Below are positions 2,078 to 26,761 of a stretch of 27,210 nucleotides of DNA, piece by piece. Position 1 is the stretch's first letter. Each line of letters begins with the position of its first letter. The stretch comes from a virus. The notes under the pieces are model-generated. The model had not been told where the DNA came from, searched no databases, and saw only the letters and a list, made by a program, of their open reading frames with translations. The stretch lies in the IMG/VR virus record IMGVR_UViG_3300049737_000276, positions 1 to 27,210 of that record; one strand, given 5' to 3'. A program made the position numbers and the translations under genes.

Positions 2078-4330
2078 TTGGCAAATTATAATTCAAGTCA
2101 TACTGGTGCAGAGATTGATTCTGCGATTGGCAGAGTCAAAGATACCGCAGTAACCGCAGGTACAGTTACCGCTAGTAAGGGTGTTGTCGTTGATGCCAAC
2201 AAGGACATATCTGGATTTCGCAACGTAACACTTACAGGACAGCTACAAGCTGCAACGATAAACCTCACAGGTGACACCACGATCGGTGATGGCGATTCCG
2301 ATAATATCACGATAAACGCTGATGTAAATTCCAATATCATACCTAACACAGACAATACCTTTGACCTCGGTTCTGCCAGTAAACAATGGAAAGACCTGTA
2401 CGTCAATGGCATCGGATACATCGACCAACTTGGTACTGATGCTGATCCGATAGCTATCTACGCATCAAGCGGTGAAATCGATGGTACTGCCATTGGTAGC
2501 GAGTCTGCAAGTACAGGTGCGTTTACTACGATAAATGCAAGTGGCAATATTACAGGAAACCTTGTAGGCAATGTTACAGGCAATGTAAGTGGTACCGCAG
2601 CAACTGTAACTGGAGCAGCTCAATCTGCTATTACATCAGTAGGTACTCTTACAACTTTGACTGTAGACGATATGACACTAAATGGTTCTACTATATCTGA
2701 TGCAGGAGCTTTTGACATTGATGCAGGTGGAGTAATTAAATTAGATGCAGGTGGTGGACAAATACAATTTTTTGATGATGGTACTGAGATTGGTGTATTT
2801 GAAAATAGTAGTTCTAATTTTGTAATAGAATCAAAAGTACAAGACAAAGACATATTGTTTAAAGGTAACGATGGTGGTTCAGGAATAACTGCTCTTACAC
2901 TTGATATGTCTGAAGGTGGAAATGCTACTTTTTCAGGTAATGTAACTATAGGAGATAAAATATTATATACTGCTAGTGATTATTTGAAATTTGCTATAAG
3001 TGGTACAGATAGACTTTGGATTTCTGATGCAACTGATAATTGGGGTTTAAACTACACAGGCAATAGTCCTTATGGTATGCAAATAACAACTGCCTCAGAT
3101 AGTAATTCTACTGATGCTTTTGTAATGAAAAGAACTTATGGAGGAAGTTTACATAAAGTATTTGAAATATTTAATAATGGAGTAATAAAAACTTATGGAG
3201 ATTCATCTTCATTAAATTTTCATAATACAGCAGGAACATTAAGAGCATTTTTACAATTAAGCAGTACAGGTCTAATTATAGACACTGATAGTTTTATCGA
3301 GTTTAAACCTAACAATTCAACTGCTATGTACATAGACAGCTCACAACGAGTGGGTATTGGTACAACAAGTCCTGCATATAAACTTGACCTTGCTTCTTCA
3401 GAGGCTATTGTTTCTCAATTTACAGGAAGTAGTGGAGAAACCATATTATCTTTAGATAATACTTCAACTAATGGTGATAAATGGTACTTAATTTCTGGTG
3501 GTAGTGGTGGAAGTTTTGCTGGTGGTAAATTTGGTATATTTAATGCCGATACTACAACAGCAGTAGCAACTTTTACTAATGATGGAAAAGTTGGTATAGG
3601 AACTTCAAGTCCAGCAAGAATACTTGATTTGAATGGGGCATCTAATACAGATGGTATAAGATTTAATAATAGTGGATATTCTTATTATAATGAAATATGC
3701 AATAATGGCGATGGTTTAATTTTTAGAGTAGACCCAGGCACAACTGGTGGTTCAGGAGTAGATTTTAGATGGACTATTAATGATGTCGAACAAATGAGGC
3801 TTGTGCAAAATGGTCAATTAAATGGTGGAGATAACTCAGGTTTAAGTGCATCTCAAGATTTATCTGCACAAGGTAATAAATTATTTTGGTCACTTGGTGG
3901 TGCTTTTGGTAGTATAGGTTTAGCTTTAAATTGTGGAGCATATACAAGTTCATACGATTTGCAAAGATTTTATAATGGGAATGGACAAGTAGGTGCAATT
4001 ACTACAAGTGGAAGTGGCACATCTTTTACTACTTCTTCAGATTACAGACTAAAAGAAAACGAAGTTGTAATATCTGATGGATTAACAAGGTTAAATCAAC
4101 TAAAGCCTTACAGGTTTAATTTTAAAGCAGATAAAGACACAACTGTTGATGGTTTCTTTGCACACGAAGTTTCAGATATAGTACCAGAAGCAATAATTGG
4201 AGAAAAAGATGCAGTAGATGATGATGGTAATATTGTATCGCAAAGCATTGACCAATCAAAACTTGTGCCATTGCTTGTTAAAGCAGTACAAGAACTAACA
4301 GCAAAAGTAGAAGCGTTAGAAAATGCGTAA
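2078..4330 (+). CDS. Tail fibre/spike with C-terminal peptidase S74 (intramolecular chaperone) domain
   Basis: A 750-aa protein with a TTG start preceded by TAGGAG. The N-terminal part contains 'LGSASKQWKDLYVNG' and repeated 'TGNLVGNVTGNVSG'-type beta segments; the middle carries two 'VGIGT(T/S)SP' motifs typical of beta-helical fibre shafts. Residues about 651-750 (bases 4028-4327) form an S74 domain: 'SDYRLKENE' with the S654-D655 pair at the expected self-cleavage site, then 'LKPYRFNFK', 'DGFFAHEVSDIVPEAI', and a terminal coiled coil. S74 domains trimerise the fibre and are then cut off. The gene probably encodes a receptor-binding fibre. Its location next to the capsid gene, far from the tail genes, is unusual. 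Codon and base composition become clearly more AT-rich after about 2650. Confidence 0.85.
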   Translation: MANYNSSHTGAEIDSAIGRVKDTAVTAGTVTASKGVVVDANKDISGFRNVTLTGQLQAATINLTGDTTIGDGDSDNITINADVNSNIIPNTDNTFDLGSASKQWKDLYVNGIGYIDQLGTDADPIAIYASSGEIDGTAIGSESASTGAFTTINASGNITGNLVGNVTGNVSGTAATVTGAAQSAITSVGTLTTLTVDDMTLNGSTISDAGAFDIDAGGVIKLDAGGGQIQFFDDGTEIGVFENSSSNFVIESKVQDKDILFKGNDGGSGITALTLDMSEGGNATFSGNVTIGDKILYTASDYLKFAISGTDRLWISDATDNWGLNYTGNSPYGMQITTASDSNSTDAFVMKRTYGGSLHKVFEIFNNGVIKTYGDSSSLNFHNTAGTLRAFLQLSSTGLIIDTDSFIEFKPNNSTAMYIDSSQRVGIGTTSPAYKLDLASSEAIVSQFTGSSGETILSLDNTSTNGDKWYLISGGSGGSFAGGKFGIFNADTTTAVATFTNDGKVGIGTSSPARILDLNGASNTDGIRFNNSGYSYYNEICNNGDGLIFRVDPGTTGGSGVDFRWTINDVEQMRLVQNGQLNGGDNSGLSASQDLSAQGNKLFWSLGGAFGSIGLALNCGAYTSSYDLQRFYNGNGQVGAITTSGSGTSFTTSSDYRLKENEVVISDGLTRLNQLKPYRFNFKADKDTTVDGFFAHEVSDIVPEAIIGEKDAVDDDGNIVSQSIDQSKLVPLLVKAVQELTAKVEALENA

Positions 4331-11588: not shown

Positions 11589-13467
11589 AAATGAACTGAT
11601 ATTACAATTTAAGTTTCAGTCTCAAAAAGCCAACACAAATGTAAAGAAAACTAATTCAGCTCTTGGAAACCTAAGAATAAAAGCATCGGGTGTTCGTAGA
11701 GAGATTGGTGGACTTAGAAACGATCTTTTACTTGCAAGTTTTGCTTTTGCAGGTGTTTCTGCTGCAATAGGTAAGGTTGTTGGAGTTTCTGCTAAATTTG
11801 AAGCTGTAAAAACACGCCTAGTGGGATTAACAGGTTCTGTAGAAAACGCAGAAAAAGCTTTTGATAATTTTAATAAAGTAGCATCAACTACGCCATTTAC
11901 ACTTGAAGACGTTGTGGATGCAGGTGCGCAGCTTCAGGCTTTTGGAGCCGATGCTAATGCTTTAATTGTTCCAATTACAGACTTAGCTGCATTTATGGGT
12001 ACTACCGCAGTAGAAGCTGCTAATGCATTTGGCCGTGCTTTTGCAGGTGGCGCAGGCGCTGCTGACATTTTAAGAGAGCGTGGAATACTTAATATTATAA
12101 AAAGCTCTCAAGGGTTAGCAGATTTATCTAAGACTACCTTACCTGAATTTAGAGAAGCTCTAATAACTTCAATACAAGATCCTGTTGTTGGGATTGCAGG
12201 ATCATCCGAAAGGCTAAGTAAAACTTTTACAGGACTAACCTCTAATATGATTGACTCCTTTACGAGATTAGCTGATTCTATTGGTGATAGCCTTATGCCT
12301 GTTATACGACCATTGTTTGAAAGTTTAAAAACAGGAGCTGAAAGAGCTGAGAGATTTATTAGAGGTTTAACTGAGACAAGTCTTGAGACAGCAATCAGAG
12401 AGTTAAAAGAATTTGAAGGAACAGCAACGCAAATAGCAGAGCTTCAAAGACTTAATCTGAACATAGAGCTGAGAGATATGCAAAAAACCTTAAAAGAGAA
12501 TAATGTTGAGTTTAAAACCACAGAAGAAGCTCAGAAGGCTTTTAATACTGCCTTAAAAGAATCAAAAAATTTAGCAATCACACAAGGAAAGTTAGTCGTA
12601 AAATCTATTGAGAAAGCAGAAAAGCAGAAAGAAATTGAAAAAGAAATTGCTGATTTAGCAGAAAGAAAAAAGGGAGTTACACTCTTAAACAATAGGGAAG
12701 AATTTTTCTCTATTACAAATAAGCAGAAGGCTCTTATAGGGGAAAGAGCAGACTTGATTAGAAAAGCTTCAAAGCTTGAAGAAATAGTTGAAAGCAACAA
12801 AGATGATGTTAAAGCGAGTCGAGACCAAGTTGAAGAGCTTGCTTCTATACTTGCTAAATTAAAAGAAATAGAAGAAATTAGAGATATATTAGCTGATAAG
12901 CCACGCCCTAAACCGCCTGTAATTCCTGATCCACCAAAACCTGAAGGTGACGATGAAGACCCTGAAGATAAAGACAAAAAGCGTTTGGATGCTATTAGGA
13001 AGTCAGCAACAATATTTAGAGAATTTGGAAAAAATATTAGCGATGCCGTAGTTCATGGAGAGAACTTAGGTGAGGCGGTAGTGGCTTCTATAAAGGCAAT
13101 CGCTGCTCAAATTATTGCACAACAAGCAACTCTTATGCTTTTAAGATTTTTCTTTCCCAATGTAACAGCAGGTGAAGCAGGTCTTGATATTTTAGAAAGT
13201 ATAGGTATTTTGCGAGGCAAATTTCACGATGGCGGATTAATTGGCGGTAATGGAAGCAATGTTCCAATCTTAGCACAACCTGGTGAGTTTGTAATGCAAA
13301 AAAGCGCAGTGCAGTCTATAGGCTTAAATAATCTTGCGAATATGAATGAGACAGGGCAGTCTGGTAATGTGATAAACGTAAGTATCAATGGCGGTATCGT
13401 TGATGAGGGTTATGTGAGAAACACATTGCTTCCTGCGCTATCTACTGAAGGTGTAAGTATTGCTTAG
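11575..13467 (+). CDS. Tail tape measure protein
   Basis: 630 aa and the longest helical protein of the tail block. The N-terminal half has 'LLLASFAFAGVSAAIGKVV' (a hydrophobic stretch) and the tape-measure pattern 'FEAVKTRLVGLTGSVENAEKAF...A..TPFTLEDVVDAGAQLQAFG'. Residues about 280-430 are heptad-like charged helices, followed by a proline-rich linker (PRPKPPVIPDPPKPEG) and a C-terminal domain with 'FHDGGLIGGNGSNVPILAQPGEFVM'. It sets tail length; about 630 residues would imply a tail of roughly 0.1 micrometre by the usual 0.15 nm per residue rule. It starts inside the GT-like gene, as in lambda, and overlaps the next gene by 8 bases. Confidence 0.85.
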   Translation: MAVDKNELILQFKFQSQKANTNVKKTNSALGNLRIKASGVRREIGGLRNDLLLASFAFAGVSAAIGKVVGVSAKFEAVKTRLVGLTGSVENAEKAFDNFNKVASTTPFTLEDVVDAGAQLQAFGADANALIVPITDLAAFMGTTAVEAANAFGRAFAGGAGAADILRERGILNIIKSSQGLADLSKTTLPEFREALITSIQDPVVGIAGSSERLSKTFTGLTSNMIDSFTRLADSIGDSLMPVIRPLFESLKTGAERAERFIRGLTETSLETAIRELKEFEGTATQIAELQRLNLNIELRDMQKTLKENNVEFKTTEEAQKAFNTALKESKNLAITQGKLVVKSIEKAEKQKEIEKEIADLAERKKGVTLLNNREEFFSITNKQKALIGERADLIRKASKLEEIVESNKDDVKASRDQVEELASILAKLKEIEEIRDILADKPRPKPPVIPDPPKPEGDDEDPEDKDKKRLDAIRKSATIFREFGKNISDAVVHGENLGEAVVASIKAIAAQIIAQQATLMLLRFFFPNVTAGEAGLDILESIGILRGKFHDGGLIGGNGSNVPILAQPGEFVMQKSAVQSIGLNNLANMNETGQSGNVINVSINGGIVDEGYVRNTLLPALSTEGVSIA

Positions 13468-24836: not shown

Positions 24837-25580
24837 TTGGATTATTTGGAATTTTTTAGTAGTCATTTGGAAGGAATTAAGCATTCCTATGGAGACGAGT
24901 ATGTTGCAAAGTGTCCTTTTCATGAAGATACCAAGCCTTCGTTTGGATTTAATGTCGAAAAAGGTGCGTGGATCTGCAGAACAGGGTGTGGACAGGGCGG
25001 TATTAAAGCATTTAAGGAAAAGATGGGCATTGTAGATACAAAAACTTACGAACCAAAGCCACGATTTGAAAAAATAGAGCAATTTAAAGCTCTGGATGAG
25101 AGTTGGGGTGTGCTTATGTTTGCATACATTGATTACTTTGAGTCAAAGTTTATGAAAGCTGCTGAGAAAAAATATGGATGGAAAAAGGATGTGATTCGTG
25201 AATGCATTGTAGGATTTGATGTTAAAAAGCAATGTTTAGTATTTGGTATTCACGATTTAAAAGGTAGATTGGTAAATATCAAATGGCATAAAAAACATGG
25301 AATTAAAGGTCATAACAGCAACACTATATATCCGATGTATAAATTTGGTAAATATGATCTTCGTAAGCCATTATTAATCGTAGAGGGAGAAAAAGACGTG
25401 ATAACAAGCATTTCACAAGGACATCAAGCAATATGTTTGACCGCAGGGTGTATGAGTAAAATTCCTGTGCAATATATTGATATATTACGCAAGTTTGAGG
25501 AGATTGGCGTAATGTATGATAACGATGAGGCAGGGGTCAATGGCTCAATTAGTCTCGTGGAGCAGTTGCGCAATGGGTAG
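24837..25580 (+). CDS. DNA primase: CHC2-type zinc finger plus TOPRIM domain (C-terminus truncated by frame change)
   Basis: 247 aa, TTG start with GAGGGAG upstream. The zinc finger is C26-P-x-H29 and C47...C51 ('KCPFHEDTKPSFGFN', 'WICRTGCGQGG'). The TOPRIM domain has E183 ('LLIVEGEKDV'), 'AICLTAGC' and the metal-binding D228-N-D230 ('GVMYDNDEAGVNGS'). It would make RNA primers for the phage replisome. The frame stops at TAG 25578-25580, about 20 residues after DxD, before the last TOPRIM strand is complete; that strand (RVKTVIHPNGSD) is encoded at the start of the next gene in the +1 frame. It is therefore a split primase-helicase or one made by frameshifting. Confidence 0.85.
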   Translation: MDYLEFFSSHLEGIKHSYGDEYVAKCPFHEDTKPSFGFNVEKGAWICRTGCGQGGIKAFKEKMGIVDTKTYEPKPRFEKIEQFKALDESWGVLMFAYIDYFESKFMKAAEKKYGWKKDVIRECIVGFDVKKQCLVFGIHDLKGRLVNIKWHKKHGIKGHNSNTIYPMYKFGKYDLRKPLLIVEGEKDVITSISQGHQAICLTAGCMSKIPVQYIDILRKFEEIGVMYDNDEAGVNGSISLVEQLRNG

Positions 25581-26679
25581 AGTGAAAACAGTCATACACC
25601 CTAATGGGTCAGATATTGGTCAAGATATAACAGACCACGCAGAGAATGGTGTACGCATTGACGATATACTTGGTCAGGGCAAGAAATCATTTGAGGTCAC
25701 CACTGCTGCGGATTTACTAAAGATAACACCGAAACCTGTGGACTGGATAGTAGAAGACCTAGTTGCTAAAGGTGTGAAGACAGTGATCGGTGGTATGACA
25801 GGTGCGAACAAGAGCTACTTTGTGATGGAGATGGCTGTACGGATAGCGTGTGGTATTGGAGAATTCATGGGTCATGCGATAAAGAAAGACTATAGCGTAT
25901 TGTATGTGAACCTGGAAATATCGAACGATGAAGTCAATCGTAGGATACAAAAGATTATATCGAATCTCCATGTAACGCATGAGGGACTCCAGAATTTACA
26001 CATCAATGTATTCGATAATGAGACATTCGATGATGTGTGGGAGAAGATAGGGAATACAGTAGAAAAGGTAAAGCCACAGCTACTTATCGTGGACAATCTA
26101 TATGCTAGTACGAATGTAAATCTATCGAGAAATGATGAGATTAAGAAGTTGTTGCGTAGGATTGATAATGTGGTAACTGAGAACGATATATCGTTGATAC
26201 TCGTTGCTCACTTTAATAAGAGCATGGGTGAGACTGAGTTAAGCCTAGAGCGTATGCAAGGTGCAAGTAGTTTGCAGAATTGGATTGAGTTTGGGATATT
26301 GCTTGGTAGAAGCTCGGTAAATACGGAGTATCGCTTGATGCGTATCGTGAAGAGTAGGATTAGCAACGCATCGCACCATCATTTTCTGCTGCAATGGTCG
26401 AATGATACGCATTTGTTTACCAAGAAAGGTATCGTTGAGAATCCTTCGGTTCACTTCTTGCCTGTAAACAAACTAGGTCAATATAAAGAGGTTCTGGATG
26501 AAATGGATGACAGATTTGATACATCAAGGTTCTTAAATGTGGTCGAAAATCAGTTCAATTTGACACGCAGGACAGGAGATCGATGGATTGCTGATTTACT
26601 TACAGCAGGGTTAATCAAGAAGGAAAAACAGGGATTATTCAAGAAAACAGACCTAGAAATTATCAAAGATGAATCGTAA
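25573..26679 (+). CDS. RepA-like replicative helicase (AAA_25/RecA-fold ATPase) carrying the end of the TOPRIM domain
   Basis: 368 aa from ATG 25573, which overlaps the primase stop by 8 bases and has GGAG ten bases upstream; an ATG at 25516 is open but encodes no domain-like sequence. The first 30 residues ('GRVKTVIHPNGSDIGQDITDHAENGVRIDDIL') read as the end of a TOPRIM domain. The ATPase follows: 'WIVEDLVAKGVKTVIGGMTGANKS' (Walker A, with N79 in place of the usual glycine), E115 in 'YVNLEIS', Walker B 'LLIVDNL' (D174), 'LILVAHFNKS' and a 'GASSLQNWIEF' sensor block. A winged-helix-like C-terminus ('LNVVENQFNLTRRTGDRWIADLL') ends the protein. It should unwind DNA at the fork with the primase. 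Confidence 0.85.
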   Translation: MGRVKTVIHPNGSDIGQDITDHAENGVRIDDILGQGKKSFEVTTAADLLKITPKPVDWIVEDLVAKGVKTVIGGMTGANKSYFVMEMAVRIACGIGEFMGHAIKKDYSVLYVNLEISNDEVNRRIQKIISNLHVTHEGLQNLHINVFDNETFDDVWEKIGNTVEKVKPQLLIVDNLYASTNVNLSRNDEIKKLLRRIDNVVTENDISLILVAHFNKSMGETELSLERMQGASSLQNWIEFGILLGRSSVNTEYRLMRIVKSRISNASHHHFLLQWSNDTHLFTKKGIVENPSVHFLPVNKLGQYKEVLDEMDDRFDTSRFLNVVENQFNLTRRTGDRWIADLLTAGLIKKEKQGLFKKTDLEIIKDES

Positions 26680-26688
26680 CACACCCCA

Positions 26689-26761
26689 TGTCGTAACTGT
26701 CGTAACTGTCGTACTTTACGACACGTACGACATTTTTTAGTAGTTTACGACAGATACGACA
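26689..26761. repeat. Heptamer array TGTCGTA/TACGACA (seven copies)
   Basis: Copies of TGTCGTA start at 26689, 26698 and 26707; copies of the complement TACGACA start at 26717, 26726, 26746 and 26755. Within each group the spacing is exactly 9 bases, and the last pair is 20 bases after the second. This follows the replication genes directly. Regularly spaced short repeats in both orientations resemble an iteron/origin cluster or repressor operator set. The central part also folds as a terminator. Confidence 0.85.
26698..26738 (+). terminator. Intrinsic terminator built from the heptamer repeats
   Basis: Outer stem TGTCGTA (26698-26704) with TACGACA (26726-26732), a 2x2 internal mismatch (AC against CG), inner stem TGTCGTA (26707-26713) with TACGACA (26717-26723) and a CTT loop, followed at once by six T (26733-26738). 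This is the shape of a rho-independent terminator for the replication operon. The gene after it would then need its own promoter or readthrough. Confidence 0.65.

What the first reader, a model, noticed from the sequence alone, without database searches (positions are those of the whole stretch)
25552..25610. Primase-helicase split inside the TOPRIM domain, with a possible +1 frameshift at GGG TAG
The primase frame ends GAG CAG TTG CGC AAT GGG TAG. The next frame (+1) continues AGA GTG AAA ACA and encodes RVKTVIHPNGSDIGQDITD, which reads as the missing last strand and helix of the same TOPRIM domain. A slip of the glycine tRNA from GGG to GGT at the slow TAG would give a continuous 613-aa primase-helicase, similar in plan to T7 gp4. 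The alternative is restart at ATG 25573, giving two proteins that must associate to complete the fold. A sequencing indel is a third option. Either biological outcome is unusual for a replisome core enzyme.
Basis: partly seen in the sequence, partly recalled or inferred. Interest (0 to 1): 0.72.

Follow-up and report, generated by a model that had tools for sequence, protein, structure and literature searches.

The report
Phage primase–helicase split inside TOPRIM domain
In a small family of marine phages the enzyme that primes and unwinds DNA is encoded as two overlapping genes cut in the middle of one catalytic domain, so the primase and the helicase most likely have to come together to rebuild the active site.

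Summary
A DnaG-type primase frame (24837-25580) stops at TAG 25578-25580, and a +1-frame AAA_25 (RepA-like) helicase frame starts at ATG 25573 (8-nt overlap, ATGGGTAG). The first ~26 residues of the helicase frame are the missing end of the TOPRIM domain. They include an Asp that aligns with the Mg-binding D237 of T7 gp4.

It is not a sequencing indel: ATGGGTAGA is identical in five further distinct phage contigs (nucleotide identity in the last 175 primase codons 71-97%). Fused relatives read straight across the site.

The +1 frameshift is possible but not favoured. The invariant GGAG lies 10 nt before the ATG, right for initiation and wrong for +1 frameshift stimulation (3 nt). Synonymous sites vary immediately outside the overlap. 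No downstream RNA structure stands out. In two relatives a stop just upstream excludes any earlier start. Eight-nt overlaps occur twice more in this phage.

Best reading: two translationally coupled proteins that rebuild one TOPRIM in trans. T4 gp39/gp60 is a direct precedent. A second phage lineage splits TOPRIM independently, once with an endonuclease gene in the gap. A new variant of a known kind; no experiment has tested it.

The parts
24837..25580 (+). DnaG-type primase ORF (247 aa, TTG start; GTG in most relatives): CHC2-type zinc ribbon plus the first part of TOPRIM (EGEKD and YDNDEAG motifs)
25377..25571 (+). Incomplete TOPRIM segment (Toprim_2 profile positions 2-67 of 88)
25559..25562 (+). 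GGAG Shine-Dalgarno-like element, 10 nt before ATG 25573; duplex energy -5.6 kcal/mol, identical in all six family members
25573..25580 (+). 8-nt stop/start overlap ATGGGTAG: ATG of the helicase, TAG of the primase; also the candidate +1 slip site (GGG TAG)
25573..26679 (+). Helicase ORF (368 aa) beginning with the TOPRIM tail, then an AAA_25/RepA-like RecA-fold ATPase
25576..25653 (+). Missing TOPRIM end (last strand, QDITD motif and helix) carried on the helicase polypeptide, residues 2-27
25624..25626 (+). Asp18 codon of the helicase ORF; aligns with T7 gp4 Asp237 (Mg ligand in a published docked model); invariant in split and fused relatives
25702..26223 (+). AAA_25 helicase domain

Best explanation
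The primase and helicase are made as two separate polypeptides from one message. Ribosomes finish the primase at TAG 25578-25580 and reinitiate, or initiate at the GGAG, at the overlapping ATG 25573. The helicase protein therefore starts with the last strand and acidic (QDITD) helix of the primase's own TOPRIM domain. The two proteins assemble, probably co-translationally and near 1:1, so that the helicase N-terminus completes the TOPRIM fold and supplies one metal-binding aspartate. This would make a two-chain equivalent of the T7 gp4 primase-helicase. Shown: the split, its conservation, the TOPRIM identity of the tail and the overlap. Inferred: coupling, association in trans and the catalytic role of Asp18.
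For: Split and ATGGGTAGA invariant in six distinct phages. The codon before GGG is AAT, CAT or GAT, so the amino acid changes but the AT of ATG is kept. GGAG invariant at 10 nt, SD energy -5.6 kcal/mol in all six, better than 86% of 627 background ATGs. In L005 and L007 a helicase-frame stop sits just upstream, so no earlier start is possible there. In this phage 18 of 29 examined gene pairs overlap; two others overlap by exactly 8 nt, 4323-4330 and 13460-13467. The literature treats -8 nt overlaps as coupled, and overlapping pairs as enriched for subunits of heteromeric complexes (PMC10666635). Tail conserved: I15-V27 invariant in the family; P10, D18, I19, D21 and K80 also invariant with fused L037 and L032. 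The profile aligns the tail with T7 gp4 CKDANE, where D237 lies. Precedents: T4 gp39 carries the TOPRIM EGDSA motif while gp60 carries DADHDG; L015-L018 split TOPRIM independently.
Against: No proteomic, ribosome-profiling or biochemical data. A -8 overlap couples less efficiently than -4 or -1 (PMC10666635). The SD spacing of 10 nt is a little long. Most conservation features, except the SD spacing and the kept ATG, could also accompany a +1 slip. Separate AlphaFold models were too poor to test association (mean pLDDT 45 and 50).
Confidence: 0.72

Rival explanations
1. Programmed +1 frameshift at GGG TAG: peptidyl-tRNA-Gly slips from GGG to GGT at the slow UAG and makes a 613-aa fused primase-helicase, alone or together with a separately initiated helicase (a T7 gp4A/4B-like pair).
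For: GGG TAG A is invariant in all six family members. The +1 frame is the right one, and fused homologues with the same domain order exist.
Against: Known +1 stimulation needs an SD 3 nt from the slip codon (PMC5009743); here it is 12 nt from GGG. Synonymous sites vary directly outside the overlap. The downstream 100 nt folds no better than shuffles (z -0.49). GGG is dictated by the overlapping ATG-GGT codons, so its conservation is not independent evidence. Helicase Met1 is kept although a frameshift would not need it.
Confidence: 0.15
2. Two separate proteins, but the primase works without the tail; the TOPRIM end on the helicase is a remnant of an ancestral fusion.
For: The primase product ends cleanly, and the pieces are separate genes.
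Against: The tail is among the most conserved parts of the helicase ORF (I15-V27 invariant) and keeps residues shared with fused homologues. The other surveyed phage primases with this motif in an uninterrupted gene continue through the KDxxD-type segment.
Confidence: 0.08
3. Sequencing or assembly indel, or a decayed gene.
For: A single-base frame change is the usual form of such errors.
Against: The identical junction occurs in five further distinct contigs, with open frames on both sides and amino-acid conservation.
Confidence: 0.01

Closest known systems
Bacteriophage T7 gp4 primase-helicase
   Same: Order of zinc ribbon, TOPRIM primase, RecA-fold helicase; the profile of the artificially joined protein plus fused relatives aligns over primase and helicase (6n7i, E 2.7e-14).
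   Different: T7 gp4 is one continuous chain; here the chain is cut before the last TOPRIM strand. The helicase part is AAA_25/RepA-like (1g8y matches at E 6.2e-13).
Fused phage TOPRIM-AAA_25 primase-helicases (Arthrobacter phage BruhMoment gp78; Idiomarinaceae phage 1N2-2 ORF55; Alteromonas phage XX1924; MAG contig L037)
   Same: TOPRIM plus AAA_25; the sequence runs continuously through the position of the split.
   Different: A single ORF; only about 20-30% identity.
Phage T4 topoisomerase II large subunit gp39 + gp60
   Same: A catalytic TOPRIM divided between two polypeptides: gp39 has the Glu motif, gp60 the DxD motif.
   Different: The T4 split lies earlier in TOPRIM and has mobA in the gap; here there is a simple 8-nt overlap and no insert.
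Phage primase lineage L015-L018 with relatives L201-L203
   Same: DnaG-type TOPRIM cut before the KDINE motif, which begins the helicase ORF (ATGA overlap in L017/L018); L201 and L202 are fused.
   Different: Different lineage, cut after the last strand rather than before it; L015/L016 carry an HNH/endonuclease VII-like gene in the gap.

Membership tests
DnaG-type / T7 gp4-like TOPRIM primase | CHC2-type zinc ribbon | tested here: met
   PF01807 E 3.9e-08 above cut-off
DnaG-type / T7 gp4-like TOPRIM primase | TOPRIM EGE and DxD motifs on the primase chain | tested here: met
   EGEKD and YDNDEAG invariant in six members
DnaG-type / T7 gp4-like TOPRIM primase | Complete TOPRIM, including last strand and third acidic motif, on the same chain | tested here: not met
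   Toprim_2 matched only to position 67 of 88; the rest lies in the next ORF
AAA_25 / RepA-like hexameric helicase | RecA-fold ATPase with Walker A | tested here: met
   PF13481 E 2.7e-24; GGMTGANKS invariant
Programmed +1 ribosomal frameshift cassette (prfB type) | Slip codon next to a stop, with the +1 frame open | tested here: met
   GGG TAG A, frame open
Programmed +1 ribosomal frameshift cassette (prfB type) | SD-like stimulator 3 nt upstream of the slip codon | tested here: not met
   GGAG ends 12 nt before GGG; spacing rule from PMC5009743
Programmed +1 ribosomal frameshift cassette (prfB type) | Trans-frame product made | not testable with these tools
   Needs proteomics or a reporter
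Translationally coupled overlapping gene pair | Start codon overlapping the upstream stop by at most 8 nt | tested here: met
   8-nt overlap conserved in six members; two other 8-nt overlaps in the phage
Translationally coupled overlapping gene pair | Downstream translation depends on upstream translation | not testable with these tools
   Needs a reporter assay
Genes-in-pieces enzyme (split, reassembling in trans) | Uninterrupted homologues exist | tested here: met
   L067, L068, L069, L037
Genes-in-pieces enzyme (split, reassembling in trans) | The two chains associate and are active | not testable with these tools
   AlphaFold models poor; joint folding not available

The most novel reading that the evidence does not exclude
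Both routes operate: most ribosomes reinitiate at ATG 25573 to make a helicase, while a set fraction slip +1 at GGG TAG to make the fused 613-aa primase-helicase. A stop/start overlap would then set the ratio of primase-bearing to helicase-only subunits in the replisome ring, much as T7 does with gp4A/gp4B.
Probability: 0.1. Interest if true: 0.7.

Novelty: new variant of a known kind. Interest (0 to 1): 0.45.

Why it matters
If the two chains rebuild one TOPRIM, primase activity can exist only in a primase-helicase complex, a natural interlock between unwinding and priming. It would add a split at a new position to the known gene-in-pieces TOPRIM enzymes and give a ready-made test for in-trans TOPRIM complementation. 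The overlap also gives a clean case for separating coupling from +1 frameshifting.

Tried and rejected
Sequencing indel: rejected by independent contigs. Downstream stimulatory RNA structure: none evident; the alignment fold is mostly invariant pairs, with 4 of 62 showing a compensated change. Rfam: no hit in the window, L007, L015 or L017, so no intron was found in the L015 insert. Pattern search for more junctions found only two additional contigs, L077 and L078, both chance matches in unrelated frames. The alignment-based genome scan gave distant primases; none showed this split on inspection. A published split phage primase was not found in the held library.

Full report
Observation. The window is a 27,210-base virus record from IMG/VR. 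The primase frame runs 24837-25580 and ends LRNG-TAG; the helicase frame opens at ATG 25573 and ends at 26679. Pfam finds a zinc ribbon and a truncated Toprim_2 in the first, and AAA_25 from residue 44 in the second.

The split is real. Seven viral contigs carry the same gene pair: L002 and L008 are near-identical to the window, and L003, L004, L005, L006 and L007 are distinct phages. L007 is 72% identical to the window in nucleotides over the last 175 primase codons and 79% over the helicase. In all of them the junction reads ATGGGTAGA. This rules out an assembly or sequencing indel.

It cuts through TOPRIM. Fused homologues (Arthrobacter phage BruhMoment gp78, Idiomarinaceae phage 1N2-2, Alteromonas phage XX1924, contig L037, fragment L032) read continuously through the junction; the residues after it align with the last TOPRIM strand and an acidic motif of the type KDxxD. 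A profile of the joined sequence and its fused relatives finds T7 gp4 and aligns this motif with CKDANE, whose Asp is residue 237. A recent docked model has T7 D207, D209 and D237 holding two Mg ions (PMC12839067). So one probable metal ligand, Asp18, sits on the helicase chain. P10, D18, I19 and D21 are invariant across split and fused proteins. In a sample of 106 YDNDEAG loci the other complete primase ORFs continue through this segment.

How the second frame is reached. In favour of initiation at 25573: ATG is invariant while the overlapping primase codon changes among AAT, CAT and GAT; GGAG is invariant 10 nt upstream and, at -5.6 kcal/mol, is better than 86% of background ATGs; in L005 and L007 a stop just upstream in the helicase frame excludes earlier starts; and the phage overlaps its genes habitually, 18 of 29 examined pairs, two others by exactly 8 nt (my notebook entry says 19, the recount is 18). 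Overlaps of -8 nt are a recognised coupling arrangement, weaker than -4 or -1, and overlapping pairs are enriched for subunits of one complex (PMC10666635). Against a +1 slip as the main route: SD stimulation of +1 shifts needs 3 nt (PMC5009743) and here the distance to GGG is 12 nt; synonymous positions vary at once outside the overlap; the downstream RNA is unremarkable. The GGG codon is forced by the overlapping ATG GGT, so its conservation does not discriminate. None of this excludes a low-level slip.

Precedents. Phage T4 gp39 carries the TOPRIM Glu motif (LFLTEGDSA) and gp60 carries DADHDG, with mobA annotated between them. A review describes this and the split nrdA and gene 43 as enzymes reassembled from pieces, with activity shown for the latter two (PMC2988022). 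A second phage lineage found here splits a DnaG-type TOPRIM before KDINE: fused in L201 and L202, ATGA-overlapped in L017 and L018, and separated by an HNH/endonuclease VII-like gene in L015 and L016. No Rfam intron was found in L015, so there the halves are probably separate proteins.

Limits. The family is small (six distinct members). Host and expression are unknown; 'marine' rests on my recollection of the IMG sample numbers and on a short match to Pelagibacter phages. Structure predictions were too poor to show association. The in-trans TOPRIM is an inference from conservation and precedent.

Verdict. New variant of a known kind.

Noticed in passing
L015 2480-3100, L016 2970-3500, L017 2490-2700, L018 3610-3800: Another phage primase lineage has its TOPRIM cut before the KDINE motif: overlapping ATGA in two contigs, an HNH/endonuclease VII-like gene exactly in the gap in two others, and fused relatives L201 and L202. 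A possible snapshot of a homing-endonuclease gene and a split gene.
   Followed up: partly
26688-26761: Cluster of TGTCGTA/TACGACA repeats in both orientations directly after the helicase gene, kept in the relatives; candidate origin, iterons or operator.
   Followed up: partly
4323-4330 and 13460-13467: Two more 8-nt stop/start overlaps between gene pairs on the + strand of this phage.
   Followed up: yes
4031-4297: End of a long tail-type gene is 79-83% identical in DNA to Pelagibacter phages (Hroenn, Bylgja, Himinglaeva, Unn), while the rest of window 1-25000 has no close match among phage records: a likely shared module.
   Followed up: no
L205 959-3829 (phage T4): Reading T4 gp39 and gp60 places the topoisomerase split between the Glu motif and the DxD motif of TOPRIM.
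   Followed up: yes
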